Shown here piece by piece: positions 9,168 through 18,387 of a stretch of 21,725 nucleotides of DNA (position 1 is the stretch's first letter; the number at the start of each line of letters is the position of its first letter). The notes under the pieces were generated by a model. The model was given only the letters and a program-made list of their open reading frames with translations, searched no databases and was not told the origin of the DNA. A program made the translations under genes and the position numbers. Location of the stretch: positions 1 through 21,725 of the IMG/VR virus record IMGVR_UViG_3300035156_000038. The stretch is one strand, 5' to 3'. This stretch comes from a virus.

Positions 9168-9196
9168 TTGACAAAACACGGATCGTCGCTTATACT
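9168..9196 (+). promoter_or_regulatory. promoter of the first tRNA segment
   Basis: TTGACA (9168-9173), 17 bases, TATACT (9191-9196). Transcription would start near 9203 and read the 9203-9373 leader, tRNA-Thr and tRNA-Phe. Confidence 0.8.
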
Positions 9197-9373: not shown

Positions 9374-9460
9374 GCTCCTTTCCCATAGTGGTTGATTGGA
9401 CTTGCCTTGTAAGCAAGCGGCGAAAGCCCAGCGTCCGTTCGAATCGGACAGGGAGCACCA
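9374..9460 (+). tRNA. tRNA-Thr (anticodon TGT) with long variable arm
   Basis: The acceptor GCTCCTT pairs fully with AGGGAGC, and CCA is encoded. The anticodon stem CTTGC/GCAAG is perfect around loop CTTGTAA. The T-arm is GTCCG/CGGAC with TTCGAAT. The variable region is 15 bases and contains a GGC-GAAA-GCC hairpin, which is unusual for a threonine tRNA (normally about 5 bases). A73 is present. Confidence 0.85.
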
Positions 9461-9462
9461 AA

Positions 9463-9539
9463 CCTTCTCAAGCTAATCAGGTTGAAAGCGACGGATTGAA
9501 AACCCGTAGAGCGTGGATCGTTACCACGGTGAAGGGCCA
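9463..9539 (+). tRNA. tRNA-Phe (anticodon GAA)
   Basis: The acceptor CCTTCTC/GTGAAGG has one mismatch, and CCA is encoded. The anticodon loop TTGAAAA has an A31:C39 mismatch below it. The T-arm CGTGG/CCACG carries the unusual loop ATCGTTA (A54, T58). It lies two bases after tRNA-Thr. Confidence 0.85.
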
Positions 9540-9592
9540 AACAACTGTGCATTGTAACCAGTGCTAAGCTGTTTGACAATTTAGAGGTAGGT

Positions 9593-9997
9593 ATGAAGTC
9601 GTGTAGCTCATGCCAAGTTGAGTATGAGCCGTACGGCCAGAGATGCAGCTTGTGTAAGGAATGTCGGCGTGCGTATGATAGACAGTACCACGCTAAGAGA
9701 AGCACTGCTGCAAAGCAGCGAAAGTTGGATGTGCAGCGAGCAGCCCGGATACGGAATTCCCAGTTTGTGTACGATTACTTTAAAAGTAACCCGTGCGTCG
9801 GATGTGGAGAAACGCGTATCCCATGCCTACAGTTTGACCACGTAGGAGATAAATCCCACACTGTATCCGATATGGTTAAAGGCTACTCATTAGCCAACAT
9901 CAAAGAAGAAATTAGTAAGTGCAGGGTATTGTGTGCTAACTGCCACGCTGTCAGAACAGCAGAGCAGTTCGGATGGTACTCCAACGTAGCTAAGTAA
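9593..9997 (+). CDS. HNH endonuclease, free-standing, 134 aa
   Basis: The protein has an N-terminal zinc-binding part (C4-x2-C7, and C18-x2-C21-x2-C24) and a C-terminal HNH core. The core comprises C68-x2-C71, D82-H83 in LQFDHVGDKSH, then C110, and C114-A-N-C-H118. This is the zinc-containing HNH arrangement typical of phage homing endonucleases, which nick or cut DNA with a single metal ion. Its place between tRNA-Phe and tRNA-Pro fits a selfish insertion in the array. The ATG is preceded by GAGGTAGGT. No intron boundaries are seen. Confidence 0.85.
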   Translation: MKSCSSCQVEYEPYGQRCSLCKECRRAYDRQYHAKRSTAAKQRKLDVQRAARIRNSQFVYDYFKSNPCVGCGETRIPCLQFDHVGDKSHTVSDMVKGYSLANIKEEISKCRVLCANCHAVRTAEQFGWYSNVAK

Positions 9998-10003
9998 GAC
10001 AAT

Positions 10004-10090
10004 CTGTGTGTAGCCCCGTAATCAGGTAGCGGCCTCGTTTTGGAAACGAGTGGGAAACCCTTGGTGGATCGAAGCCACCCGCGCAGACCA
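10004..10090 (+). tRNA. tRNA-Pro (anticodon TGG) with extra variable-arm hairpin
   Basis: The acceptor CTGTGTG/CGCGCAG pairs throughout with G:U pairs, and CCA is encoded. The anticodon stem CTCGT/ACGAG is perfect around TTTGGAA. The T-arm GGTGG/CCACC has loop ATCGAAG (A54). The variable region (TGGGAAACCCTT) holds a GGG-AAA-CCC hairpin. The gene starts seven bases after the HNH gene's stop codon. Confidence 0.85.
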
Positions 10091-10110
10091 AGTATTTAAG
10101 TGAGAAAGAC

Positions 10111-10139
10111 TTGACAAAGATAGGAAGCTAGTGTATTAT
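10111..10139 (+). promoter_or_regulatory. promoter of the Ala-Gly-Cys-Leu tRNA segment
   Basis: TTGACA (10111-10116), 17 bases ending GTG, then TATTAT (10134-10139). tRNA-Ala begins 25 bases downstream. Confidence 0.8.
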
Positions 10140-10163
10140 TCAAGTCTAGGCAGTAAAGAATAT

Positions 10164-10243
10164 GGGGATAGGGACTGCTAGAAGTGGTCATTCGCCTTGC
10201 ACGCGGAATATCAGCCGGGTTTGAATCCTCGGTATCTCCACCA
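10164..10243 (+). tRNA. tRNA-Ala (anticodon TGC)
   Basis: The acceptor GGGGATA/TATCTCC pairs fully (one G:U), and CCA is encoded. The D-stem is GAC/GTC and the anticodon stem TTCGC/GCGGA surrounds CTTGCAC. The T-arm CCGGG with CTCGG carries one extra base on its 3' side. Confidence 0.85.
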
Positions 10244-10251
10244 AGTTTTAC

Positions 10252-10328
10252 GGGCGAGCACCGGAGTGATCCGGCCTTCTTTTGAAGGTACAGCTAAGCA
10301 GTGGTTAGATACCGCTCCTTGTCCACCA
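10252..10328 (+). tRNA. aberrant tRNA or tRNA-like element, anticodon unclear
   Basis: The acceptor GGGCGAG/CTTGTCC pairs (with G:U), CCA is encoded, and a compact D-like hairpin CCGG-AGTGAT-CCGG is present. The anticodon position forms CCTTC-TTTT-GAAGG, leaving only a four-base loop; TTT or TTG could be exposed if the stem opens. The T-arm position reads AGTGG-TTAGATA-CCGCT and lacks the usual T-loop. It may be a decayed tRNA or a mimic. Confidence 0.45.
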
Positions 10329-10454
10329 GAATCATCGCAGAAGCGGCGTGAGCTAATCTACACTCACTGAGGTCATTGTCCACCAAAAGTCAGAACGGAC
10401 GGTATTATTAACTAGGCAACATGCAGCCCCCGTAGGAAAGCATGTAAGAACAAA
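10329..10454 (+). other. structured spacer with a CCA-ended remnant
   Basis: No complete tRNA folds here. A 3' end ATTGTCCACCA at 10374-10384 resembles that of the preceding aberrant tRNA (TTGTCCACCA). A GTGAG/CTCAC hairpin precedes it, and an ACATGC/GCATGT 6-bp hairpin lies at 10419-10445. It is probably tRNA debris or a small structured RNA. Confidence 0.35.
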
Positions 10455-10528
10455 GCAGGTAATCATAAGGTGTGACGCAAGCCTTCCAAGCTTCGCTGAG
10501 TGGAGTTCGATTCTCCCTACCCGCTCCA
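10455..10528 (+). tRNA. tRNA-Gly (anticodon TCC)
   Basis: The acceptor GCAGGTA/TACCCGC has one A:C mismatch, and T73 and CCA are present, T73 being usual for glycine. The anticodon loop is CTTCCAA. The T-arm GGAG-TTCGATT-CTCC has four good pairs. Confidence 0.85.
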
Positions 10529-10534
10529 AACAGT

Positions 10535-10610
10535 ACACGTATGGCTGATCGGCTTAGGCCCCGGATTGCAAACCCGGTGTAGCTGGGTTCGATTCCCGGT
10601 ACGTGTTCCA
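10535..10610 (+). tRNA. tRNA-Cys (anticodon GCA)
   Basis: The acceptor ACACGTA/TACGTGT is perfect, with T73 and CCA. The anticodon arm CCGG-ATTGCAAAC-CCGG has an A31:C39 mismatch closing the loop, as in tRNA-Phe. The T-arm is canonical (GGG-TTCGATT-CCC). Confidence 0.9.
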
Positions 10611-10713
10611 AGATAGGCACTTATGCCTTGCGCAAGCGGAAAATAAGCTGGGGCTAGCATCATCTAGCCTTGCCTTCGCCGGGAAGGGACTACAAATAAC
10701 CGGAACGAATATT
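10611..10713 (+). other. structured tRNA spacer without a canonical tRNA
   Basis: The stretch has hairpins GGCA-CTTA-TGCC (10616-10627), CTTG-CG-CAAG, GGCTAG-CATCAT-CTAGCC and CCTTC-GCCGG-GAAGG in succession. There is no CCA end and no standard T-loop. It is either part of the precursor or an unassigned small RNA. Confidence 0.35.
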
Positions 10714-10795
10714 GGGCGAGTGGCTTATGGAAACGGTACACCTACCTGCCTTAGAAGCAGGGCTTTTGCTGGTTCGAATCCAGTCTTGCCTACCA
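10714..10795 (+). tRNA. tRNA-Leu (anticodon TAG) with short variable region
   Basis: The acceptor GGGCGAG/CTTGCCT pairs fully with G:U, and A73 and CCA are present. The anticodon stem CCTGC/GCAGG is perfect around CTTAGAA. The T-arm is GCTGG/CCAGT with TTCGAAT. Only six bases (GCTTTT) separate the anticodon stem from the T-stem, whereas bacterial leucine tRNAs normally have a long variable arm. Confidence 0.8.
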
Positions 10796-10800
10796 AGTTA

Positions 10801-10968
10801 CGCTGTGTTGATAGAATTCGGTTACTTCATACTTTGACTTTTAATCAAACCCATTGCCGAAAGGCAGTTACCGATTCGCCAGTTACCAGCAAATTTACGG
10901 CTTGCCGATATAAACCGATACTTCTTCGCTAATAGCCGATAACACCGAGGGGTGCGGCGTTTCTGTTT
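10801..10968 (+). ncRNA. tRNA-mimic / Y RNA candidate upstream of the TROVE gene (copy 1)
   Basis: The element contains TTACGC-T-GTGTTGAT and the box GAATTCGGTTACTTC (GTTACTTC at 10821-10828), shared with the next element. GAA(T)TCGG at 10814-10821 pairs with CCGATTC at 10871-10877, followed by GCCA. Inside are a 5-bp TTTGA/TCAAA arm with a 7-base loop CTTTTAA (anticodon-like TTT) and a TGCC-GAAA-GGCA hairpin where a T-arm would be. A GCCG...CGGC hairpin with GTTTCTGTTT (10935-10968) may terminate it. It is not a normal tRNA. Confidence 0.4.
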
Positions 10969-11084
10969 AGCCAGTTGCAGCCAGTTTTACGCAGTGTTGA
11001 TTGAAACAGTTACTTCTTACCTTTGCTAAAGAGAGTTCCGTTCGAATCGGATTAATCCACGGTGGACGACCATTTCTGTTTCGC

Positions 11085-11113
11085 TTGTTACCTGCTTATA
11101 TTTGTAGTAGAAT
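11085..11113 (+). promoter_or_regulatory. possible promoter of the TROVE gene
   Basis: TTGTTA (11085-11090), 17 bases, TAGAAT (11108-11113). The -10 is the same as that of the portal promoter. It abuts the terminator-like hairpin, so it could start a TROVE mRNA in which the hairpin's left arm is partly missing. Confidence 0.4.
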
Positions 11114-11168
11114 GCCCCTACCTCTGCCAGCTAGCCCAGAGCTAGTGAGCAAGTAGGGGCTTTTGTTT
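11114..11168 (+). terminator. intrinsic terminator before the TROVE gene
   Basis: GCCCCTAC (11114-11121) pairs perfectly with GTAGGGGC (11153-11160), enclosing a smaller CTCTG/CAGAG stem, and is followed by TTTTGTTTT. The same 8-bp stem sequence forms the terminator at 2195-2214. Confidence 0.75.
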
Positions 11169-11209
11169 TAACCACGCCCGTTAGGGTAAACCAACCAAGG
11201 AGATTGTAA

Positions 11210-12520
11210 ATGGCATCGACTAACAAAAAAGTAGCACAACCGCGTACCGCAACCACTCACGCTGGCCTAGCTGTTAAGCAGCTTGGGGCAAACGATAAGC
11301 TGGTGCGTCTGACGCTGGCACACATGCTGTTCGAAGGGCAGTTCTACGTGAACGGCCAAACATCGGCAACCCTGTTGCAATCAGCCGTGAAAGCCGCTGA
11401 CCCACGTTTCGTAGCTACGCTGGCAGAAACCGCCCGTACTGATTACAAACTGCGTCACGTGCCGCTCTACCTGATTCGTGAACTAATCCGCAATGGTGAC
11501 GCTACCGCTGCCGACATCGACAACGTGATTCGTCGCCCGGATGAAATGGGTGAACTGCTTTCGCTGTATAACAAGCCGAAGCGTCAACCGCTGTCGCATC
11601 AACTGAAGAAAGGTCTGCGTCAAGCATTTGGCCGCTTCAACGAATACTCGCTAGCCAAGTTCGACAAGAACTCCGCTGGTTACAGCATCCGTGATGTGAT
11701 GTTCATGGTACGCCCAAAGCCTGCCACGCCAGAACAGGAAGCCCTGTACAAGCGTATCGCAGACGGCACAATGGCAACCCCGGATACGTGGGAAACCGAA
11801 CTGTCGGCTGGTGCGGATAAGAAGGAAACGTTCGAACGCCTGATGGGCGAAAAGAAGTTGGGCGCTCTGGCGTTCCTGCGCAACCTGCGTAACATGGTGC
11901 AAGCTGGTATCTCCACTTCGGTGATTCGTGCTTACGCTGAAACGCTGGATGTCAAGAACGTCCTGCCATTCCGCTACATCGCCGCTGCACGTGTTGTACC
12001 GCAGTTCGAAGATATGCTGGAAGCTATGATGTTCCGTTCGCTGCAAGGCGTGGAGAAGATCAAGGGCAAGACGGTGTTGATGGTGGACGTTTCGGGTTCG
12101 ATGTTCGGTACGAAGGTATCGGCCAAGTCCGACCTTGACCGCTTCGATGCAGCAGCGGCCTTGGCTGTTCTGTGCCGTGAGATTTGCGAAGAAGTGGAAA
12201 TCTACTCCTTCAGCAATCAATCGAAGCTGGTAGCGCCTCGCCGTGGCTTTGCTCTGGTGGAAGCTATCCGTAACAGCCAGTCGCACGGCGGTACTGCGAT
12301 GGGACGTTCGTACGCTGAAATCTCGGCTAAGACTTCGTTTGACCGCATCATCTGCTTCACCGATGAGCAATCGAGCGACCGCCCAGCCAAGCCGAAGGGT
12401 AAAGGTTACATCATCAACGTTGCTAGCTACCAAAATGGCATCAACGAAGACGCATGGACTACCGTTACCGGGTTCTCGGAAGCGACTTTGGAATACATTA
12501 AGTTTGTCGAAAAGCTGTAA
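11210..12520 (+). CDS. rsr: TROVE-domain Ro60/Rsr orthologue, 436 aa
   Basis: This is a full-length Ro60-type protein. The N-terminal TROVE ring (about residues 15-270) contains the family-like stretches EYSLAKFDK (145-153), DVMFMVRPKP (162-171) and LGALAFLRNLRNM (217-229). The C-terminal von Willebrand A domain has a complete MIDAS: D293-x-S295-x-S297 in VDVSGSM, T362 in GGT, D385 in CFTDEQ. In animals and Deinococcus, Ro60 binds Y RNAs and misfolded RNA and, in bacteria, can be tethered by Y RNA to polynucleotide phosphorylase. Translation starts at ATG 11210 after AAGGAG. It sits between tRNA-Leu(TAG) and tRNA-Leu(CAA), with candidate Y RNAs on both sides. A role in tRNA or host RNA quality control is inferred. 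Confidence 0.92.
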   Translation: MASTNKKVAQPRTATTHAGLAVKQLGANDKLVRLTLAHMLFEGQFYVNGQTSATLLQSAVKAADPRFVATLAETARTDYKLRHVPLYLIRELIRNGDATAADIDNVIRRPDEMGELLSLYNKPKRQPLSHQLKKGLRQAFGRFNEYSLAKFDKNSAGYSIRDVMFMVRPKPATPEQEALYKRIADGTMATPDTWETELSAGADKKETFERLMGEKKLGALAFLRNLRNMVQAGISTSVIRAYAETLDVKNVLPFRYIAAARVVPQFEDMLEAMMFRSLQGVEKIKGKTVLMVDVSGSMFGTKVSAKSDLDRFDAAAALAVLCREICEEVEIYSFSNQSKLVAPRRGFALVEAIRNSQSHGGTAMGRSYAEISAKTSFDRIICFTDEQSSDRPAKPKGKGYIINVASYQNGINEDAWTTVTGFSEATLEYIKFVEKL

Positions 12521-12526
12521 AGCCTC

Positions 12527-12555
12527 TTGACAAGCAAGCTAGCTAGGTGTATAAT
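12527..12555 (+). promoter_or_regulatory. perfect consensus promoter after the TROVE gene
   Basis: TTGACA (12527-12532), exactly 17 bases ending GTG, then TATAAT (12550-12555). Both boxes match the sigma70 consensus at every base. It drives the 12562-12680 element and the following tRNAs. Confidence 0.9.
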
Positions 12556-12561
12556 CACTCC

Positions 12562-12680
12562 ACTTAGCTAGCAAAGACCTTACAAAAGGTCTTAACTATA
12601 ACTCTGGTGTTAGAATCGGTTACTTCTTCAACTGGTGAAAACAAAGCTCCGATTCGCCTTTTCCGGGTTATAGTTAAGAT
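12562..12680 (+). ncRNA. structured RNA bounded by a 12-bp inverted repeat, Y RNA candidate (copy 3)
   Basis: It begins at the expected start of the consensus promoter. A hairpin AAGACCTT-ACAA-AAGGTCTT (12575-12594) overlaps the start of a perfect 12-bp terminal stem, CTTAACTATAAC (near 12591-12602) with GTTATAGTTAAG (near 12667-12678). Inside, GAATCGG pairs perfectly with CCGATTC, and GAATCGGTTACTTC (box at 12619-12626) gives the shared D-arm-like hairpin. The closed rod with an internal tRNA-like box resembles Y RNA architecture. There is no coding potential. Confidence 0.5.
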
Positions 12681-12685
12681 TTTAT

Positions 12686-12768
12686 GTGCGTGTGGCTTAG
12701 GTAAATTGGCACAGCCACCCGGCTCAAAACCGGGGCTTTTGCTGGTTCGAATCCAGTCACGCATACCA
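12686..12768 (+). tRNA. tRNA-Leu (anticodon CAA) with short variable region
   Basis: The acceptor GTGCGTG/CACGCAT pairs fully (first pair G:U), and A73 and CCA are present. The anticodon stem CCCGG/CCGGG surrounds CTCAAAA. The variable region and T-arm (GCTTTT then GCTGG-TTCGAAT-CCAGT) are identical to those of tRNA-Leu(TAG), so the pair arose by duplication or recombination. Confidence 0.8.
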
Positions 12769-12776
12769 AGAACAAT

Positions 12777-12862
12777 TGCGAGGTAGAGAGTAGGGGTAGC
12801 TCGTCAGGCTCATAACCTGAACCTTAATTGGCTCGGCGGTTCGATTCCGCCCTTCGCAACCA
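12777..12862 (+). tRNA. tRNA-Met (anticodon CAT)
   Basis: The acceptor TGCGAGG/CTTCGCA pairs fully with one G:U, and A73 and CCA are present. The D-stem is GAG/CTC and the anticodon stem TCAGG/CCTGA surrounds CTCATAA. The T-arm GGCGG/CCGCC is perfect with TTCGATT. The variable region is 14 bases (ACCTTAATTGGCTC), unusually long. A lysidine-type Ile tRNA cannot be excluded by anticodon alone. Confidence 0.85.
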
Positions 12863-12867
12863 GAATT

Positions 12868-13257
12868 ATGCATACTAAAACTAAAGGAGACATCGCAGAG
12901 GCGATGGTAGCCGCACGGCTCCTACAAACAGGTGCGGCTGTACTAAAGCCGATGGGCGACAACCTGCGATACGATCTTGTAATTGACCGCGACGGGAAGT
13001 TCTACCGGGTTCAGTGCAAGATGGGTAAGTTGAAAGCTGGTAGTGTTCATTTCAGCACTTGTAGTAGTACCGCTAAGGAAAGCTACGAAGGGCAGATTGA
13101 ATACTTCGGCGTGTACTGCCCAGATAATGACGAATCCTACCTAATCCCGATTGAGGATTGCAAGGTAGGCCGTCAAAAGAGTTTGCGAGTGCAGGAAGCT
13201 AAGAACGGCCAAACAGCGGGTGTCACTTTAGCAGGGAAGTACAAACTGGGTCTATAA
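12868..13257 (+). CDS. PD-(D/E)XK homing endonuclease, I-Ssp6803I-like, 129 aa
   Basis: The N-terminus TKGDIAEAMVAARLLQTGA followed by NLRYDLVIDRDGKFYRVQCK is the restriction-fold homing-endonuclease pattern: E11, D36, and Q49-x-K51. This matches, as I recall it, the active-site layout of I-Ssp6803I, which is encoded in a group I intron of a cyanobacterial tRNA-fMet gene. Here the gene starts five bases after the CCA of tRNA-Met, with no ribosome-binding site and no visible intron. Its last ten bases are the first bases of tRNA-Lys. It is therefore likely a free-standing homing gene that uses the tRNA-Met locus. Confidence 0.8.
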   Translation: MHTKTKGDIAEAMVAARLLQTGAAVLKPMGDNLRYDLVIDRDGKFYRVQCKMGKLKAGSVHFSTCSSTAKESYEGQIEYFGVYCPDNDESYLIPIEDCKVGRQKSLRVQEAKNGQTAGVTLAGKYKLGL

Positions 13258-13323
13258 CTTAACTGGTTAAAGTAGGTGGCTTTTAACCATCAAATCGGGG
13301 TTCAAGTCCCTGTGGACTCACCA
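13248..13323 (+). tRNA. tRNA-Lys (anticodon TTT), overlapping the endonuclease gene
   Basis: The acceptor GGGTCTA/TGGACTC pairs fully (with G:U), and A73 and CCA are present. The anticodon stem GGTGG/CCATC surrounds CTTTTAA and the T-arm is CGGGG/CCCTG with TTCAAGT. The first ten bases are also the last three codons and stop codon of the preceding gene, so cutting out this tRNA would remove the end of that mRNA. Confidence 0.9.
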
Positions 13324-13332
13324 AGATTCAAT

Positions 13333-13411
13333 TCCGCAGAACCCGAGCATGGCGCATGGGCGTGACTGTTAATCACTGACTAGGCTGGATCGTTACCAGC
13401 GTGCGGAGCCA
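13333..13411 (+). tRNA. tRNA-Asn (anticodon GTT)
   Basis: The acceptor TCCGCAG/GTGCGGA has one mismatch, and G73 and CCA are present. The anticodon loop CTGTTAA has four stem pairs. The T-arm GCTGG/CCAGC carries the unusual loop ATCGTTA (A54, T58). Confidence 0.85.
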
Positions 13412-13418
13412 GAACAAT

Positions 13419-13494
13419 ATTGCGTTAGTATAAAGGTCAGTACGGGGGACTTTCAATCCCTAGATGTTCGGTTCAAGTCCGACACGCAATACCA
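13419..13494 (+). tRNA. tRNA-Glu (anticodon TTC)
   Basis: The acceptor ATTGCGT/ACGCAAT is perfect, with A73 and CCA. The D-arm is GTAT/GTAC and the anticodon arm GGGGA-CTTTCAA-TCCCT. The T-loop is TTCAAGT. Confidence 0.9.
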
Positions 13495-13503
13495 TTACAA
13501 TTT

Positions 13504-13631
13504 ATTTACGCATACGTTGGTTCCTAGTACGGGGGTTCGAATCCCAATGGTAACGGAAGTGGAGCCAAGCTACCGCAGCTTAATTACCTGCGAAATGCGC
13601 CACGTAGCGAGTGAGCGGCGTATGCGTAAAT
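13504..13631 (+). ncRNA. structured element bounded by a perfect 13-bp inverted repeat, Y RNA candidate (copy 4)
   Basis: ATTTACGCATACG (13504-13516) and its exact reverse complement (13619-13631) enclose 102 bases with no tRNA or gene. Inside are a T-arm-like hairpin GGGG-TTCGAAT-CCC and, before it, TTGGTTCCTAG, which resembles a D-loop. A long terminal stem plus a tRNA-elbow-like module is the architecture of bacterial Y RNAs. It sits between tRNA-Glu and tRNA-Val and ends five bases before tRNA-Val. Confidence 0.45.
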
Positions 13632-13636
13632 ATATT

Positions 13637-13711
13637 GGTCGATTAGCTCAGCGGTAGAGCGGAGTCTTTACACGGCTTTGGTCGGCGGTTCAATCCCGTC
13701 ATCGACTACCA
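13637..13711 (+). tRNA. tRNA-Val (anticodon TAC)
   Basis: The acceptor GGTCGAT/ATCGACT pairs fully, and A73 and CCA are present. The D-arm GCTC/GAGC is standard. The anticodon loop is TTTACAC and the T-arm GGCGG/CCGTC with TTCAATC. Confidence 0.9.
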
Positions 13712-13721
13712 AGATTACAAC

Positions 13722-13814
13722 GCATACAAGTTAGATATTGGTTAAGCTAACCGGGACTGTAACCCCCGAGAGCCGCTAGACGGCGTGGACGTTCGATTCG
13801 TTCTGTATGCACCA
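13722..13814 (+). tRNA. tRNA-Tyr (anticodon GTA)
   Basis: The acceptor GCATACA/TGTATGC is perfect, with A73 and CCA. It has a long variable arm with GCCG-CTAGA-CGGC, as expected for bacterial tyrosine tRNA. The anticodon arm CGGG-ACTGTAAC-CCCG has four pairs and an eight-base loop, one base short of standard. Confidence 0.88.
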
Positions 13815-13820
13815 AACAAA

Positions 13821-13896
13821 GCATCATTAGCTCAATTGGGAGAGCGTCTGCCTGTCGAGCAGAGGGTAAGCGGATCGAAACCGCTATGGTGCGCCA
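13821..13896 (+). tRNA. tRNA-Asp (anticodon GTC)
   Basis: The acceptor GCATCAT/ATGGTGC pairs (one G:U), and G73 and CCA are present. The anticodon stem TCTGC/GCAGA surrounds CTGTCGA. The T-arm AGCGG/CCGCT has loop ATCGAAA with A54. Confidence 0.9.
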
Positions 13897-13902
13897 AACA
13901 TT

Positions 13903-13976
13903 ATCACGCCCGGTGGATTCCCGGCTCAGCGGCTACGAACCGCAGATACAAGGTTCGACTCCTTGGCGTGGTTCCA
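13903..13976 (+). tRNA. tRNA-Arg (anticodon ACG)
   Basis: The acceptor ATCACGC/GCGTGGT pairs fully (one G:U), and T73 and CCA are present. The anticodon arm GCGG-CTACGAA-CCGC and the T-arm CAAGG/CCTTG are clear. A34 would need deamination to inosine to read CGC/CGA. The D-loop is short. Confidence 0.85.
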
Positions 13977-13984
13977 GATACAGT

Positions 13985-14058
13985 GGTGAAGATAGTGTAA
14001 TGGGAGCATAACTGTCTGTGAAACAGTTGGAACGGGATCGAAACCCAGCTTCACACCA
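13985..14058 (+). tRNA. tRNA-His (anticodon GTG)
   Basis: The acceptor GTGAAGA/GCTTCAC has one mismatch. A G precedes it as the usual G-1, although position 73 reads A rather than C. The anticodon stem ACTGT/ACAGT surrounds CTGTGAA. The T-loop is ATCGAAA with A54, and the T-arm is one base short. Confidence 0.82.
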
Positions 14059-14071
14059 AGAATAGGTTGGC

Positions 14072-14121
14072 CGTACATTGGTCTTAATTGGCTAAGAACG
14101 GCGTGATCGTACTAATGTACG
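14072..14121 (+). ncRNA. 50-nt anticodonless tRNA-like hairpin structure
   Basis: CGTACATT (14072-14079) pairs perfectly with AATGTACG (14114-14121), extended inward by three pairs including G:U. Inside is a clear D-arm-like hairpin TCTT-AATTGGC-TAAGA containing the GG pair typical of D-loops, then 16 bases. There is no anticodon arm and no CCA. It may be a tRNA fragment or a minimal mimic. Confidence 0.4.
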
Positions 14122-14160
14122 TGGCTTCGCTGGGGTGGAAAGATAAAACCCTAGCCCGAT

Positions 14161-14234
14161 AGTGGGTTAGCTCAAAGGCAGAGCACACGCTTGATAAGCG
14201 TTAGACGTTGGATCGTTACCATCACTCACTACCA
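14161..14234 (+). tRNA. tRNA-Ile (anticodon GAT)
   Basis: The acceptor AGTGGGT/ACTCACT pairs (one G:U), and A73 and CCA are present. The D-arm GCTC/GAGC is standard. The anticodon loop TTGATAA has four stem pairs. The T-loop is the unusual ATCGTTA, as in tRNA-Phe and tRNA-Asn. Confidence 0.88.
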
Positions 14235-14242
14235 AGAACAAT

Positions 14243-14318
14243 TGCAGCGTAGCTCAACTGGTAGAGCAGCAGACTTTGACTCTGTTGGTTGCAGGTTCAA
14301 ATCCTGCCGCTGTTGCCA
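14243..14318 (+). tRNA. tRNA-Gln (anticodon TTG)
   Basis: The acceptor TGCAGCG/CGCTGTT has an open first pair, as glutamine tRNAs often do, and G73 and CCA are present. The anticodon stem GCAGA/TCTGT surrounds CTTTGAC. The T-arm GCAGG/CCTGC with TTCAAAT is perfect. Confidence 0.9.
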
Positions 14319-14640
14319 GTAATACAGCAAGTACCGGGGGCATACACCCGGACGACCGCAGGATTCCACTAGGCTGTGCGCAGCCTATTGTAGACATTAC
14401 AGGTTGCCAAGCTAGATTGCTATGGGGGTGATGCCCCAGTCTAGCCCAGAAGTCCTAGTAGCTGTAGCTAGGCGCATACACGGAGAAGCCCGGATTGGGC
14501 CTCTTATGCCCGGTATGGCAAGAATGTGGGTGAGCAAACCCGGCTCTGACAGCGCGTAAACATCGCCCTGCTGGCTCGCTTTTGCAAGCCGGTTAAGGGA
14601 AGGTTTCGAACAACCGGATTCACTCACACACAGATTATAA
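14319..14640 (+). other. 320-nt block of nested hairpins without canonical tRNAs
   Basis: Between tRNA-Gln and tRNA-Trp there is no gene or standard tRNA, but pairing is dense. GTAAT/ATTAC (14319-14400) encloses CCGGG/CCCGG and TAGGCTG-TGCG-CAGCCTA hairpins and ends in TTGCCA. GCTAGA/TCTAGC (14410-14445) encloses TGGGG/CCCCA. CCTAG/CTAGG and GCATA/TATGC with GCCC/GGGC lie around 14453-14515. A 9-bp stem TGTGGGTGA/TCACTCACA (14525-14628) encloses CTGGCT/AGCCGG and a GGTT-TCGAAC-AACC arm. These could be tRNA remnants or several small RNAs. Confidence 0.45.
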
Positions 14641-14646
14641 CACAAT

Positions 14647-14723
14647 ATATCCGAATGTCCCAAGGTGGCGAACGTGGCTCCAAACCATGTTGCGGCGGGT
14701 TCGATTCCGTGCCGGATATGCCA
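14647..14723 (+). tRNA. tRNA-Trp (anticodon CCA)
   Basis: The acceptor ATATCCG/CGGATAT is perfect, with G73 and CCA. The anticodon loop is CTCCAAA. The T-loop is TTCGATT, with a bulged base in the T-stem. Confidence 0.88.
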
Positions 14724-14731
14724 AATTAGTT

Positions 14732-14766
14732 AGCCGCTCCCGCCTCGTCGCTGGGGCGGCTTTTTA
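14732..14766 (+). terminator. intrinsic terminator closing the main tRNA array
   Basis: AGCCGC-T-CCC pairs with GGG-GCGGCT around a short loop and is followed by TTTTT. It separates tRNA-Trp from the structural genes. No new promoter is obvious before 14796, so some read-through is likely. Confidence 0.8.
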
Positions 14767-14795
14767 CGTTGTACCCTTCCATTTTAAGGAAAATT

Positions 14796-15239
14796 ATGTC
14801 TAAAAGCAATACATTCGAAAATGACCTGATGCTGTGCATTTTCAACAACGCCAACATGGCCCTTATCGGTGACGCCACGGGTATCCGTGGCAGCACTGCT
14901 GTTGGCAACCTGTACATTTCGCTGCACACTGGCGATCCGGGTGAAGCAGGCAATCAAGCCACTAGCGAAGCAGCCTACACAGGTTACGTCCGTATGGCCC
15001 TTCCTCGCACTGCTGCTGCGTTCAACGTGGTAGCTAATGCTGTTAATCTGGTGGCTAACCTTGAGTTTGGAGCTTGCACGGCTAGTCCGGGTGCAGCCCT
15101 TACCCACTTTGCTATCGGCACAGACGCAGCAGGCGCAGGTAAGGTTCTTTACAAGGGAACGCTAACCCCTAACGTAACTATGGCCGTTGGTGTCGTGCCT
15201 CGCATCACTACCGCTGCTAACCTTGTAACTGAGGATTAA
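14796..15239 (+). CDS. phage structural protein, Gp80-like tail/fibre-associated family, 147 aa
   Basis: The ATG at 14796 has AAGGA six bases upstream. The longer frame from 14769 lacks a ribosome-binding site. The protein reads SNTFENDLMLCIFN at the start, then NLYISLHTGDPGEAGNQATS, EAAYTGYVRM and, later, THFAIGTDAAGAGKVLYKGTL. This is a very common phage virion-associated family seen next to tail-fibre and head-completion genes. Its exact role is unknown. It opens a five-gene structural cassette inserted between tRNA groups. Confidence 0.7.
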   Translation: MSKSNTFENDLMLCIFNNANMALIGDATGIRGSTAVGNLYISLHTGDPGEAGNQATSEAAYTGYVRMALPRTAAAFNVVANAVNLVANLEFGACTASPGAALTHFAIGTDAAGAGKVLYKGTLTPNVTMAVGVVPRITTAANLVTED

Positions 15240-15243
15240 TCCA

Positions 15244-15648
15244 ATGGCAATCACTAAAGAAGAAGTTGTAGCAAAGGTTTCTGCTGAACTGATTGCCAGC
15301 CGTGATTGCCAAGCAATTGCAGCGGCAGCTAGTGTTGGACGAAAACGTTCCACCAAGCGTGAAATTGGTTACGGCACAATCCTAGAAACAGTGGGATTCG
15401 TGGCGGGTAATGCCGTATGTGATGAAATTAATAACAACCCTATGTACCGCTACGTAAAACCGTTGGTGGAGCAGGGTCGCATGTTAATTGGTTCCCCTAT
15501 GGTGGCAGCAGCCCTGCAAGCTATGGTTCCAGCAGTCATCCCACAAGCAGTGGCGGATAAGCTAAAAGCGTTGGGCCTAGAAGACGACCCTGTAACAGCC
15601 CAGGATGTCGCAATTGCCCTTTATAACCCGGACGGGAGTGACAAGTAA
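15244..15648 (+). CDS. phage protein of unknown function in the structural cassette, 134 aa
   Basis: It starts five bases after the preceding stop. The protein is helical, with an Ala-rich segment (SRDCQAIAAAASVGRKRSTKR, about residues 19-38) and a hydrophobic stretch (IGSPMVAAALQAMVPAVI) that could contact a membrane or another subunit. No catalytic motif is visible. The TAATG overlap with the next gene indicates coupled translation. Its association with structural genes is positional. Confidence 0.6.
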   Translation: MAITKEEVVAKVSAELIASRDCQAIAAAASVGRKRSTKREIGYGTILETVGFVAGNAVCDEINNNPMYRYVKPLVEQGRMLIGSPMVAAALQAMVPAVIPQAVADKLKALGLEDDPVTAQDVAIALYNPDGSDK

Positions 15649-16025
15649 TGCCAATTTCTAAAGCAGCATCAACAATTTTTGCAGCAAGCACGGCTGTTGC
15701 GGCAGGCACGCTTAAGTCAAGTCCAGTCGTAGGAAGCTCAGTTGATTGCCGCAGTTGCTACGGCGGCGAACTAACCTACAAGATTACAAACAACGCTGGC
15801 ACATTCACAGCAGCTTGTATTATCGTATTCCAAGTTTCCCATGACGGGGCTAACTGGTACGATTATTACCCTGTCTACGGCGATACAGCAGCCTCTAGCG
15901 TGAACAGTGGTGCACTACTCCTTGACCGCCCTGTTATGTATGTCCGTGCCATTGCGTTCGGTGTCACTGGAAGCGGGGCTTCTTCTACCGTGGAAGCGTC
16001 GGTACAGAATGTAACGGGGGTGTAA
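15648..16025 (+). CDS. phage virion-associated beta-rich protein, 125 aa
   Basis: The ATG overlaps the preceding stop. After an Ala/Ser-rich N-terminus the protein is beta-rich, with the segment IIVFQVSHDGANWYDYYPVYG and a C-terminal MYVRAIAFGVTGSGASSTV. This recalls small jelly-roll-like phage proteins (tail or baseplate accessory) in which a 'VSxDGxNWY' motif is frequent. A role in the virion is likely from context. The precise function is unknown. Confidence 0.6.
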   Translation: MPISKAASTIFAASTAVAAGTLKSSPVVGSSVDCRSCYGGELTYKITNNAGTFTAACIIVFQVSHDGANWYDYYPVYGDTAASSVNSGALLLDRPVMYVRAIAFGVTGSGASSTVEASVQNVTGV

Positions 16026-16026
16026 T

Positions 16027-17736
16027 ATGGCTCTAATGCGCTATCAGCCGTATGGATTGGTTAGACTGGGGGGCAATCGTGGCCTTCAACGCGGATTGGT
16101 AGCGTATGCCCGACTATCTGGCCGCAACACCATTGACCCTGTAGACGGGAAGCCTTGGGCGGTGAATGTAGGGGCGACCCCGCTAACATTTGACGGTACT
16201 CCAAGGGGCATGGGGATGAAGATGAAGGGGGAAACCCCCTCGTTCGTGTCAAGACTTGCCCCCTCCACGATTTCCCCCGGAACGTCACAGCCTGCAACAA
16301 TTCGCTTCAGGCTGTTCTTCCGCAATATGCCAATTCAAGGCTACTCTCTTATGTCTTGGGGAGATAGTCCTCAAGATGGCAACCCGCGACTGTACATTCG
16401 TGTTAACGGGGGAGGTCAAATCAACCTATACCGTGGGGGAGGATACAACTACAACTTTCAGTGCGTGGCAGGTAAGGAGTATATTATCACTTATGCCTGT
16501 GACGGTACGCTGTTCACTCTCTATGTCAATGGAGAGGTTGTAGGCGTTGCAGGGGGATCATGGGGTGGAAATACTTCCGCGTTCTACGTTGGAAGTGGGT
16601 ACGATGGATATAACTATTCCGCTGACTACATCATTTCAGACTTCGCAGTGTGGAACCGTGGGCTAACCAGTGCGGAAGTGGTGAGCGATTACCAGAACCC
16701 TTGGCAAATGTTCGCAACAGACCACGAAGAAGAAGAACCTATTGTAGTCGTAACGGCGGGATACGCTGATACGGCGGGTAGCTCAAGCGGAGCTTCCACA
16801 GTAACAGGCGTGGCGAGAGCCGTAGCACAAGCTTACGGGAGCAGTGCTGCACTGGCAGCGGCAGCAGCGGGAGCCCAAGCGGTAGCCCGTACAAGCGGAA
16901 GCTCCGTAGCGGCCTCTAGCACAGGCGCAACAGCGTACAGCGTATGGAACGTCAACGGAGCGTCACAAGGCTCTGCAACGGCCTCTGTGCCAGCCTTTAG
17001 CGTAGCCAACACTGCTGCGTCTGCTACAGGCGCATCATCGGCGGGTGGTACGGTAGTTTCGGTTGCGTGTGCTAACGGTAATTCGTCAGCATCGGCTACC
17101 GTAACAGGCAACGCAGCTTGCGTATGGCAGATTGTAGGTAACGCGTCGGGCGGGGCAACCGTCAACGCAGTATCCGCGTTTGGTAATAACGAACCGGGCA
17201 ACACGGTAGTCTACTGGGATGTCCAAGGCGCAAGCTACGGTAGTGCTTCAGCGTCGGCTACAGCGAGGGCAGTAACTAACTCGGCTGGTTCTTCTGGTGG
17301 TAACTCATTGGTGACGGCAAGCGCCCAAGCCCTGACAAGCGCAATTGGATCGGCCCTAGCCTCGGCTACGGCAGCAGGCACAGGCGCTATGGTTATCACT
17401 ACCACGGGTGCAGCAGTTGCGGCCAGTTCAGCAGCAGGTAATGCTAATGCGGTGGCTAGCACAAGCGGTAACACCGTTGGTGGAAGTTCTACACAAGCAG
17501 TCTGTCTGACCATCTACGAAAGCGTAGCAAACAGCCTAAGCACGAGTATTGTGCAGGCAGTTACACAATCTGTAGTTGAAGCCATTGGTAATGCTAACGG
17601 CTTTGCCAAGGTTTCGGGAACAACTGAGGGTGGTGTACATTACACGGCTTCCGGCGACAAGTTTAGCGTAACTGTCACGTTCTCCCCGTACAGAATCACG
17701 GTGGAAAGCAACCCATATACCGTAACATTTAATTAA
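16027..17736 (+). CDS. tail fibre/adhesin with LamG-like domain and Ala/Ser/Gly repeats, 569 aa
   Basis: Residues about 90-222 form a concanavalin/LamG-like fold: TIRFRLFFRN, then NLYRGGGYNYNF, the typical YITYACDGTLFTLYVNGE-type strand pair, and the closing WNRGLTSAEVVSDY. From about residue 240 to 525 the protein is a run of degenerate repeats of some 20 residues (patterns like GxSSAxAxxxGxAxAV) made almost only of Ala, Ser, Gly, Thr and Val. The C-terminus ends in a beta segment, ITVESNPYTVTFN. The LamG part is likely to bind host glycans, and the repeats probably form a long fibrous stalk. Receptor binding is inferred. Confidence 0.75.
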   Translation: MALMRYQPYGLVRLGGNRGLQRGLVAYARLSGRNTIDPVDGKPWAVNVGATPLTFDGTPRGMGMKMKGETPSFVSRLAPSTISPGTSQPATIRFRLFFRNMPIQGYSLMSWGDSPQDGNPRLYIRVNGGGQINLYRGGGYNYNFQCVAGKEYIITYACDGTLFTLYVNGEVVGVAGGSWGGNTSAFYVGSGYDGYNYSADYIISDFAVWNRGLTSAEVVSDYQNPWQMFATDHEEEEPIVVVTAGYADTAGSSSGASTVTGVARAVAQAYGSSAALAAAAAGAQAVARTSGSSVAASSTGATAYSVWNVNGASQGSATASVPAFSVANTAASATGASSAGGTVVSVACANGNSSASATVTGNAACVWQIVGNASGGATVNAVSAFGNNEPGNTVVYWDVQGASYGSASASATARAVTNSAGSSGGNSLVTASAQALTSAIGSALASATAAGTGAMVITTTGAAVAASSAAGNANAVASTSGNTVGGSSTQAVCLTIYESVANSLSTSIVQAVTQSVVEAIGNANGFAKVSGTTEGGVHYTASGDKFSVTVTFSPYRITVESNPYTVTFN

Positions 17737-17744
17737 GGAACATT

Positions 17745-18068
17745 ATGCAGATTGAACGCAGACGCGGGGATACTGGGCCGGATACTTGCACGGTATCTGC
17801 ACACGGCGATGCAGCAAACATTACTGGGTGCACATTCCTGATGACGCTAAGCCGGGTTCCAAACCCGGTTGACGCTTCCCAGCAAGTGTATCAAATTGAA
17901 GGAGTTATTATAGACGCGGCAGCCGGGGTGGTGGAATTCAGCCCCACTGCCGAGCAAGCTAATCAGGTAGGATACTTCTATTACGACATCCAAATGACGG
18001 ACTCGTACGGGAAAGTACATACCCCGATTACTGGCAACTACGTCTACAAGCAGGACATTACCAAATAA
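17745..18068 (+). CDS. BppU-like baseplate/receptor-binding N-domain protein, 107 aa
   Basis: The sequence pattern (DTCTVSAHGDAANITGCTFLM, then IIDAAAGVVEFSPTAEQANQ, then FYYDIQMTDSYGKVHT, ending YVYKQDIT) is that of the short beta-sandwich found in BppU-type baseplate upper proteins and many stand-alone phage tail proteins. It has only this domain. It probably assembles with the neighbouring adhesin. The ATG at 17745 has AAGGA upstream. A six-pair AACGCC/GGCGTT hairpin follows the stop codon but lacks a T-run. Confidence 0.7.
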   Translation: MQIERRRGDTGPDTCTVSAHGDAANITGCTFLMTLSRVPNPVDASQQVYQIEGVIIDAAAGVVEFSPTAEQANQVGYFYYDIQMTDSYGKVHTPITGNYVYKQDITK

Positions 18069-18086
18069 CGCCCTCGGGCGTTGCTA

Positions 18087-18115
18087 TTGACAAAGCTAGC
18101 TAGGTAGTGTATTAT
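18087..18115 (+). promoter_or_regulatory. promoter of the Ser-Ser-Arg tRNA group
   Basis: TTGACA (18087-18092), 17 bases containing GCTAGCTAGG and ending GTG, then TATTAT (18110-18115). tRNA-Ser starts nine bases later. The spacer closely resembles that of the promoter at 12527. Confidence 0.85.
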
Positions 18116-18123
18116 GCAGGCAT

Positions 18124-18212
18124 GGAAGATTAACCAGCCGGGGCGCTGGCGGTGATTGCTAATCACTTGGTACGCACCCGCGTATGGCAGTCGGGATGTC
18201 AGTCTTCCGCCA
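18124..18212 (+). tRNA. tRNA-Ser (anticodon GCT)
   Basis: The acceptor GGAAGAT/GTCTTCC pairs fully (one G:U), and G73 and CCA are present. The anticodon arm GGTGA-TTGCTAA-TCACT and a long variable arm are as expected for serine. Confidence 0.9.
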
Positions 18213-18220
18213 AGAACAAT

Positions 18221-18306
18221 GGAGAGTAGCGTACAGGGTACAAAGCAGCCTTGAAAACTGTGCCAGTCTTGATCGGCTGATGGTTCGATTCCTTTATTCT
18301 CCGCCA
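18221..18306 (+). tRNA. tRNA-Ser (anticodon TGA)
   Basis: The acceptor GGAGAGT/ATTCTCC pairs fully (one G:U), and G73 and CCA are present. The anticodon loop is CTTGAAA with a C31:A39 mismatch. A long variable arm is present, and the T-loop is TTCGATT. Confidence 0.88.
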
Positions 18307-18311
18307 TATTC

Positions 18312-18387
18312 GCGTCCTTAGCTTAATGGATAAAGCAGGGAACTTCTACTTCCCGTGATGGGGGTTCAAGTCCTCTAGGACGCTCCA
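18312..18387 (+). tRNA. tRNA-Arg (anticodon TCT)
   Basis: The acceptor GCGTCCT/AGGACGC is perfect, with T73 and CCA. The anticodon stem GGGAA/TTCCC surrounds CTTCTAC. The T-loop is TTCAAGT. Confidence 0.92.

What the first reader, a model, noticed from the sequence alone, without database searches (positions are those of the whole stretch)
9374..18387. tRNA set covering all 20 amino acids
I fold tRNAs for Thr, Phe, Pro, Ala, Gly, Cys, Leu (2), Met, Lys, Asn, Glu, Val, Tyr, Asp, Arg (2), His, Ile, Gln, Trp and Ser (2): 23 recognisable tRNAs and all 20 amino acids within 9 kb. Such completeness would let the phage translate if host tRNAs are destroyed, for example by anticodon nucleases. That use is inference.
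Basis: partly seen in the sequence, partly recalled or inferred. Interest (0 to 1): 0.7.

Follow-up and report, generated by a model that had tools for sequence, protein, structure and literature searches.

The report
Phage's minimal, odd-shaped tRNA set
This bacterial virus really carries 23 tRNA genes, exactly one for each block of codons in the genetic code, and several of them have an unusual 'elbow' loop that I found over and over in viruses but essentially never in cells, which suggests viruses have reshaped these universal molecules.

Summary
All 23 tRNAs are present at the stated place, cover 20 amino acids, and each of the 23 codon boxes is served exactly once. ARAGORN finds 13 and Rfam adds Phe. 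The other 9 are supported by cloverleafs with an encoded CCA that shuffled sequence does not give, and by orthologues in two related phages with 205 compensatory pair changes against 26 broken pairs.

Complete phage tRNA sets are already known (XacN1, T5-like Sugarlandvirus). The replacement-pool reading is partly supported. The set is complete by amino acid but not by codon (no decoder for UUA or AUA). Those codons are rare in this phage, and late genes shift towards the codons its U34 tRNAs read best. Host codon bias is not excluded, and no host is known.

The unexpected part is structural. Seven of 23 tRNAs have non-canonical T-loops. The ATCGTTA type (A54/U58/A60 instead of U54/A58/Y60) recurs in at least 120 viral contigs. 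In 84,980 prokaryote genomes the strict form gave two true tRNAs, both in virus-like arrays. Positions 54 and 58 covary (no U54/U58 among 2,709 tRNAs). I found no report of it in the searchable literature. Its function is untested.

The parts
9374..9460 (+). tRNA-Thr (UGU), long 15-nt variable arm
   Evidence: ARAGORN; Rfam
9463..9539 (+). tRNA-Phe (GAA), T-loop ATCGTTA
   Evidence: Rfam; orthologue
9593..9997 (+). free-standing HNH endonuclease ORF inside the array
   Evidence: PHROG 2255 E=4.8e-26
10004..10090 (+). tRNA-Pro (UGG), 12-nt variable arm, T-loop ATCGAAG
   Evidence: covariation
10164..10243 (+). tRNA-Ala (UGC), T-stem with a bulge
   Evidence: orthologues
10455..10528 (+). tRNA-Gly (UCC)
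   Evidence: covariation
10535..10610 (+). tRNA-Cys (GCA)
10714..10795 (+). tRNA-Leu (UAG)
11210..12520 (+). Ro60/Rsr-like TROVE protein with vWA domain (DxSGS motif)
   Evidence: Pfam TROVE E=9.8e-12; PHROG 850; PDB 9l5y
12686..12768 (+). tRNA-Leu (CAA)
   Evidence: Rfam 25.4 bits; covariation
12777..12862 (+). tRNA-Met (CAU), initiator-like (U1-A72, A11-U24), 14-nt variable arm
12868..13257 (+). PD-(D/E)XK (PDDEXK_5) endonuclease ORF; its end overlaps tRNA-Lys by 10 nt
   Evidence: Pfam PF11645 E=6e-36
13248..13323 (+). tRNA-Lys (UUU)
13333..13411 (+). tRNA-Asn (GUU), T-loop ATCGTTA
   Evidence: covariation
13419..13494 (+). tRNA-Glu (UUC)
13498..13637 (+). structured RNA: ~25-bp closing stem around a T-arm-like hairpin; Y-RNA-like architecture (its last base is the first base of tRNA-Val)
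   Evidence: folding z=-3.4; syntenic RNAs with different but pairing stems in L022 and L009
13637..13711 (+). tRNA-Val (UAC)
13722..13814 (+). tRNA-Tyr (GUA)
   Evidence: covariation
13821..13896 (+). tRNA-Asp (GUC), T-loop ATCGAAA
13903..13976 (+). tRNA-Arg (ACG)
13985..14058 (+). tRNA-His (GUG), T-loop ATCGAAA, encoded G-1
   Evidence: orthologues
14161..14234 (+). tRNA-Ile (GAU), T-loop ATCGTTA
14243..14318 (+). tRNA-Gln (UUG)
14647..14723 (+). tRNA-Trp (CCA), bulged T-stem conserved in three phages
18124..18212 (+). tRNA-Ser (GCU), T-loop GTCGGGA (the same loop in three other relatives)
18221..18306 (+). tRNA-Ser (UGA)
   Evidence: Rfam tRNA-Sec-like 29 bits; orthologues
18312..18387 (+). 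tRNA-Arg (UCU)
9168..9196 (+). sigma-70 promoter-like site, 11/12 match
10111..10139 (+). sigma-70 promoter-like site, 11/12 match
12527..12555 (+). sigma-70 promoter-like site, 12/12 match
18087..18115 (+). sigma-70 promoter-like site, 11/12 match

Best explanation
The phage carries a non-redundant minimal tRNA set, one tRNA per codon box as in mitochondria, preceded by four strong host-type promoter sites and kept functional by selection (shown by sequence and covariation). It serves as a substitute tRNA pool for translation during infection, mostly of late genes, when host tRNAs become limiting because of infection or host tRNA-cleaving defences (inferred). The departures from the canonical elbow (A54/U58/A60 T-loops, A54/A58 loops, T-stem bulges, variable arms on class I tRNAs) are maintained variants, not decay. 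They most likely make the phage tRNAs poor substrates for host enzymes or nucleases that recognise the elbow or variable loop (inferred, not tested). Ro60 and an RNA ligase encoded by the phage may handle damaged or misfolded tRNAs (inferred; both are optional in relatives).
For: 23 real tRNAs, each box once; no duplicated anticodons among the tRNAs found in six related contigs. Four promoter sites at 11-12 of 12 consensus positions. UUA is 2% of Leu while CUA is 17%, and AUA is 2% of Ile; relative to other families UUA:UUG is -1.35 and AUA:AUC -2.88 log units here, against mostly higher values in phages that carry tRNA-Leu(UAA) or tRNA-Ile(UAU). Late genes gain A-ending codons in U34 boxes (+0.87 log units, permutation p=0.0005) while UUA and AUA do not follow (p=0.03). 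Odd T-loops are conserved by isotype across relatives (Asp ATCGAAA, Ser GTCGGGA, Ile ATCGTTA). 54 and 58 covary: U-A 2356, A-U 266, U-U 0. Precedent: retron-Eco7 and Septu cut the tRNA-Tyr variable loop, and the T5 tRNA-Tyr resists through its variable loop (PMC13096335, PMC11555353); anticodon-loop evasion is proposed in PMC10264068.
Against: UUA, AUA and CGG are still used, so host tRNAs are needed. GC content differs between the phages compared, and host codon bias could cause the same avoidance; the host is unknown. No evidence of host tRNA loss, of charging, or of nuclease resistance. Ro60 is found in only one of six related records tested, and the RNA ligase is missing from the closest one.
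Confidence: 0.55

Rival explanations
1. Codon compensation only: the tRNAs top up host tRNAs for codons that the phage uses more than its host, with no destruction of host tRNAs.
For: Late genes use A-ending codons that match the phage's U34 tRNAs; XacN1 shows this trend against its host (PMC5852040).
Against: A compensating set should be biased to a few anticodons; here every box is covered exactly once, including boxes likely to be well served by any host, and relatives show no duplication.
Confidence: 0.25
2. Selfish or neutral accumulation: tRNA genes gathered through recombination and homing endonucleases, now drifting, which explains the odd structures.
For: HNH and PDDEXK endonuclease ORFs lie between tRNAs; gene order differs from L022 by inserted head genes.
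Against: Exactly-once coverage, 205 compensatory against 26 broken pairs, strong 54-58 covariation and isotype-specific conservation are not drift.
Confidence: 0.08
3. Decoys or sensors: some tRNAs, above all those with non-canonical elbows, act as baits for host tRNA nucleases or as regulatory RNAs rather than as translators.
For: Variable-loop changes sit where known defences cut (PMC13096335).
Against: Anticodon stems and loops and CCA ends are retained; the Asn, Ile and Phe boxes have only the odd tRNA in this phage.
Confidence: 0.07

Closest known systems
Xanthomonas phage XacN1 tRNA set (56 genes in two repeats, 26 canonical per copy)
   Same: all 20 amino acids; class I tRNAs with long variable arms occur there too (Lys, Gly, Thr)
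   Different: redundant set in a 385-kb jumbo phage; the 14 tRNAs read here all have canonical T-loops; with tRNA-processing enzymes (PMC5852040)
T5-like Sugarlandvirus (Klebsiella phage K32PH164C1) tRNA clusters
   Same: tRNAs for all 20 amino acids with an HNH endonuclease inside; its tRNA-Ile carries the same ATCGTTA loop
   Different: some isotypes duplicated; only one odd T-loop among 23 tRNAs found
Mycobacteriophage C1 tRNA clusters (36 tRNAs in Rizal) proposed to evade anticodon nucleases (PMC10264068)
   Same: large tRNA cluster, proposed escape from tRNA cleavage
   Different: proposal concerns the anticodon loop; here the departures are in the T-loop, T-stem and variable arm
Eukaryotic initiator tRNA T-loop (A54, A58)
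   Same: A54 with A58, as in the window's Asp and His tRNAs
   Different: initiator only and A54-A58 (PMC7912444); the phage class A54/U58/A60 occurs in elongator tRNAs of many isotypes
Bacterial Ro60 (Rsr) with YrlA Y RNA
   Same: TROVE+vWA protein and, about 1 kb away, an RNA with a long closing stem and a T-arm-like hairpin
   Different: no Rfam match for the RNA; Rsr equivalog cut-off of NCBIfam not reached

Membership tests
Complete phage tRNA set | tRNAs for all 20 amino acids on one phage contig | tested here: met
   23 tRNAs
Complete phage tRNA set | decoder for every sense codon | tested here: not met
   no UAA, UAU or second CAU (Ile2) anticodon found; so not self-sufficient by codon
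Canonical bacterial tRNA | T-loop U54, U55, C56, R57, A58 | tested here: not met
   7 of 23 depart (Phe, Asn, Ile, Asp, His, Pro, Ser-GCU); the rest keep U54 and A58
Canonical bacterial tRNA | cloverleaf maintained by compensatory change | tested here: met
   205 compensatory, 32 one-sided, 26 broken pairs
Anticodon-nuclease-evading phage tRNA (PMC10264068) | changes in the anticodon loop relative to host at cleavage sites | not tested
   host unknown, no host tRNAs to compare
Ro60/Rsr | TROVE domain and vWA domain | tested here: met
   PF05731 45.2 bits over cut-off 23; the vWA_Ro60 model (22.2) is below its cut-off 27.7; PDB TROVE chains E=6.8e-19 over residues 42-432
YrlA-type Y RNA | closing stem of the 5' and 3' ends plus tRNA-like module, bound by Ro60 | tested here: inconclusive
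   stem and T-arm-like hairpin present and syntenic in L022, stem in L009; no Rfam hit; binding not testable; similar long-stem elements also occur in arrays without Ro60 in the slice
RNA ligase DRB0094 family | TIGR02306 score above cut-off | tested here: met
   161.2 bits against 151.15

The most novel reading that the evidence does not exclude
Phages have evolved a virus-only class of tRNAs in which the universal U54-A58 T-loop pair is replaced by A54-U58 (with A60). The rebuilt elbow lets the tRNA work on the ribosome while escaping a host enzyme that recognises the normal T-loop, either a tRNA-cleaving defence nuclease or the T-loop modification and quality-control system.
Probability: 0.35. 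Interest if true: 0.85.

Novelty: new variant of a known kind. Interest (0 to 1): 0.6.

Why it matters
U54 of the T-loop is called universally conserved, with a U54-A58 pair in cellular elongator tRNAs (PMC7912444). A tRNA class that breaks this rule consistently, covaries at 54-58, spans many isotypes, and is widespread in viruses but essentially absent from cells points to a virus-specific selection on the tRNA elbow. It makes a direct prediction: host nucleases or modifying enzymes that read the T-loop should miss these tRNAs. A cultured phage (Klebsiella phage K32PH164C1) already carries one, so this can be tested. The minimal one-per-box set also gives a clean natural case for how far a virus can replace a host tRNA pool.

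Tried and rejected
Pseudogene or decay reading: rejected by covariation and isotype-specific conservation of the odd loops. Chance cloverleafs: rejected by shuffles. tmRNA in this array: none found by ARAGORN or Rfam in the window, although related phages have permuted tmRNAs. Near DNA relatives among isolated phages: none, so no host. A bare 14-base T-loop pattern in viral contigs is partly chance by count; only hits inside a cloverleaf were used. Long inverted repeats as a Ro60-specific Y RNA signature: they are enriched in arrays but also occur in arrays with no Ro60 in the slice, so the Y RNA claim is kept weak. Codon test across phages is confounded by GC content; kept only as supporting. 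BLAST of a common viral tRNA-Asp (ATCGTTA loop) against isolated phages gave nothing.

Full report
What was checked. The window is the first 21.7 kb of an 85.7-kb virus contig. It carries a T4-type terminase, a Mu-type portal protein and head proteins next to the array, so it is a tailed phage. The claim was 23 tRNAs for 20 amino acids in 9 kb.

Are the tRNAs real? ARAGORN and Rfam 13, one of them (Phe) new, at the curated threshold. A cloverleaf search gives the remaining anticodons except Trp, with an encoded CCA. Shuffled sequence gives 0.07 such hits per 9.4 kb at the loosest score used and none at score 44. Trp was recovered by an anticodon-anchored search in the window and in two related phages, L009 and L022: the acceptor stems are ATATCCG/CGGATAT, AGGTCCG/CGGGCCT and GCCCCCG/CGGGGGT, and all three share a T-stem with one bulged base. 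Over the tRNAs with an orthologue, 205 stem pairs changed on both sides and still pair, 32 changed on one side, 26 are broken. These genes are under selection to fold as tRNAs.

The set. The 23 anticodons cover each of the 23 codon boxes once (eight four-codon boxes, fifteen others). Among the tRNAs found in related contigs no anticodon is repeated. This is the minimal set in the sense of mitochondria. It lacks a UUA decoder (the second Leu tRNA is CAA) and an AUA decoder, and it has one CAU tRNA, which looks initiator-like (U1-A72, A11-U24, read from the sequence). Whether this tRNA also elongates, as in mitochondria, is inference.

Expression and context. Four sites match the sigma-70 consensus at 11 or 12 of 12 positions with a 17-base spacer, at 9168, 10111, 12527 and 18087, each ahead of a tRNA sub-cluster. 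Inside the array lie an HNH endonuclease and a PDDEXK_5 endonuclease, a Ro60-like TROVE protein, and a 140-nt RNA at 13498-13637 with a 25-base closing stem around a T-arm-like hairpin. At the same place L022 and L009 have RNAs whose closing stems have different sequence but still pair. This is the architecture of Ro60-binding YrlA RNAs (from general knowledge), but Rfam does not recognise it, and long-stem elements are frequent in tRNA arrays generally. Elsewhere the contig encodes a DRB0094-type RNA ligase. Among the related records tested, Ro60 occurs in one of six and the ligase in four of seven, so both are optional.

Codon usage. In 74 ORFs UUA makes up 31 of 1,486 Leu codons although CUA makes up 257 and UUG 242, and AUA 22 of 954 Ile codons. 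Compared with other families in the same genome, UUA:UUG is 1.35 and AUA:AUC 2.88 log units low; the nearest relative, also lacking those tRNAs, behaves the same, while phages with tRNA-Leu(UAA) or tRNA-Ile(UAU) are mostly higher. Late genes carry more A-ending codons in the U34 boxes than early genes (permutation p=0.0005), and UUA and AUA do not follow (p=0.03). This fits late translation leaning on the phage tRNAs. It is not proof: GC content differs between the phages, gene calls are simple ORFs, 'late' and 'early' are assigned from position and strand, and the host is unknown.

The unexpected finding. Seven of the 23 T-loops are non-canonical: ATCGTTA in Phe, Asn and Ile; ATCGAAA in Asp and His; ATCGAAG in Pro; GTCGGGA in Ser-GCU. 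The odd loops are conserved by isotype in relatives. A scan for T-arms GGGGATCGTTACCCC followed at the right distance by CCA gave at least 120 rows in viral contigs, where the scan stopped; 78 of the 81 hits held at that time sit in proper cloverleafs, 72 of them Asp. The same scan of 84,980 bacterial and archaeal genomes gave six hits, about the chance number; two are tRNAs, one on a 3-kb MAG contig with scattered tRNAs and one in a sparse 11-tRNA array, both virus-like in layout. In 398 genomes of one phylum the canonical pattern occurs in 397 genomes, typically about a dozen times each; the odd pattern occurs once in each of 11 genomes (backwards control 3), and apart from the array just named and one poor match none is a cloverleaf. 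Among 2,709 distinct viral tRNAs positions 54 and 58 are U-A 2,356, A-U 266, A-A 43, C-A 16, G-G 13, C-G 9 and U-U 0. Leaving out every tRNA matching the search pattern, 75 A-U tRNAs remain in 57 loci and 19 anticodons. The A-U class has A60 in 245 of 266, where canonical tRNAs have a pyrimidine in 2,282 of 2,356, and the usual 15-48 pair is mostly lost. Stems are about as well paired as in canonical ones (68% against 62% without mismatch). The counts are biased because most loci were fetched by the pattern, but the lack of U-U and the cell-virus contrast do not depend on that. Two cultured phages carry the loop: Klebsiella phage K32PH164C1 (tRNA-Ile) and Xanthomonas phage X1 (tRNA-Lys). A review calls U54 universally conserved except in eukaryotic initiators, which have A54-A58 (PMC7912444). 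Nine searches of the held paper library found no mention of the viral class; papers outside that library were not seen.

Other structural departures. Class I tRNAs with variable arms of 10 nt or more occur here (Thr, Pro, Met) and in 62 of 199 viral loci; XacN1 has them too.

How it probably works. Shown: real genes, kept paired by selection, one per box, odd loops conserved, strong promoter matches. Inferred: substitute pool for late translation; odd elbows and variable arms keep phage tRNAs from host enzymes. The precedent is direct for the variable loop: retron-Eco7 and Septu cut tRNA-Tyr there, and the T5 tRNA-Tyr resists through its different variable loop (PMC13096335, PMC11555353). For the T-loop no defence nuclease was found in the library searched.

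Verdict. The set itself is a new member of a known kind (XacN1: PMC5852040; Sugarlandvirus). The virus-specific T-loop class raises it to a new variant.

Noticed in passing
window 9463-9539, 13333-13411, 14161-14234; loci L028-L107, L181-L233: Virus-specific tRNA T-loop class with A54/U58/A60 in place of U54/A58/Y60, in many isotypes and many phages, essentially absent from cells.
   Followed up: yes
window 13498-13637; L022 1740-1889; L009 10408-10597: Syntenic structured RNA with a 20-25 bp closing stem of changing sequence and (window, L022) a T-arm-like hairpin, near a Ro60 gene in two of the three phages; possible phage Y RNA not in Rfam.
   Followed up: partly
tRNA arrays of G000-G010 and L031, L104, L186, L262: Inverted repeats of 18 bp or more enclosing 55-230 nt are about 7 times denser inside tRNA arrays of the Ro60 phages than outside; possible family of array-borne non-coding RNAs.
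   Followed up: partly
L012 4366-4457, L020 1119-1213: tRNA-Ile(UAU) with a long variable arm (22-25 nt); 35 of 150 viral tRNA-Ile had a long arm.
   Followed up: no
L022 3367-3456: tRNA with Gln anticodon UUG on what looks like a tRNA-Leu body with a 17-nt variable arm; which synthetase charges it is unclear.
   Followed up: no
L010 10448-10596, L011 9593-9846, L154 5960-6398: Permuted tmRNA genes in tRNA arrays of related Ro60 phages.
   Followed up: no
L020 5539-5625, L165 17235-17314: Putative amber suppressor tRNAs (CUA anticodon) in related arrays.
   Followed up: no
L025 1971-7398 (contig about 43.7-49.1 kb): NAMPT-like, PRPP-synthetase-like and NADAR genes close together, possibly an NAD+ salvage module against NAD-depleting defences.
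   Followed up: no
window 14769-18068: Five ORFs (one a head protein family) separate Trp from the Ser-Ser-Arg tRNAs here, while in L022 these tRNAs are adjacent to Trp.
   Followed up: no
L021 (607,744-nt contig G011): Jumbo viral contig with 56 tRNA matches and a Ro60 relative.
   Followed up: no
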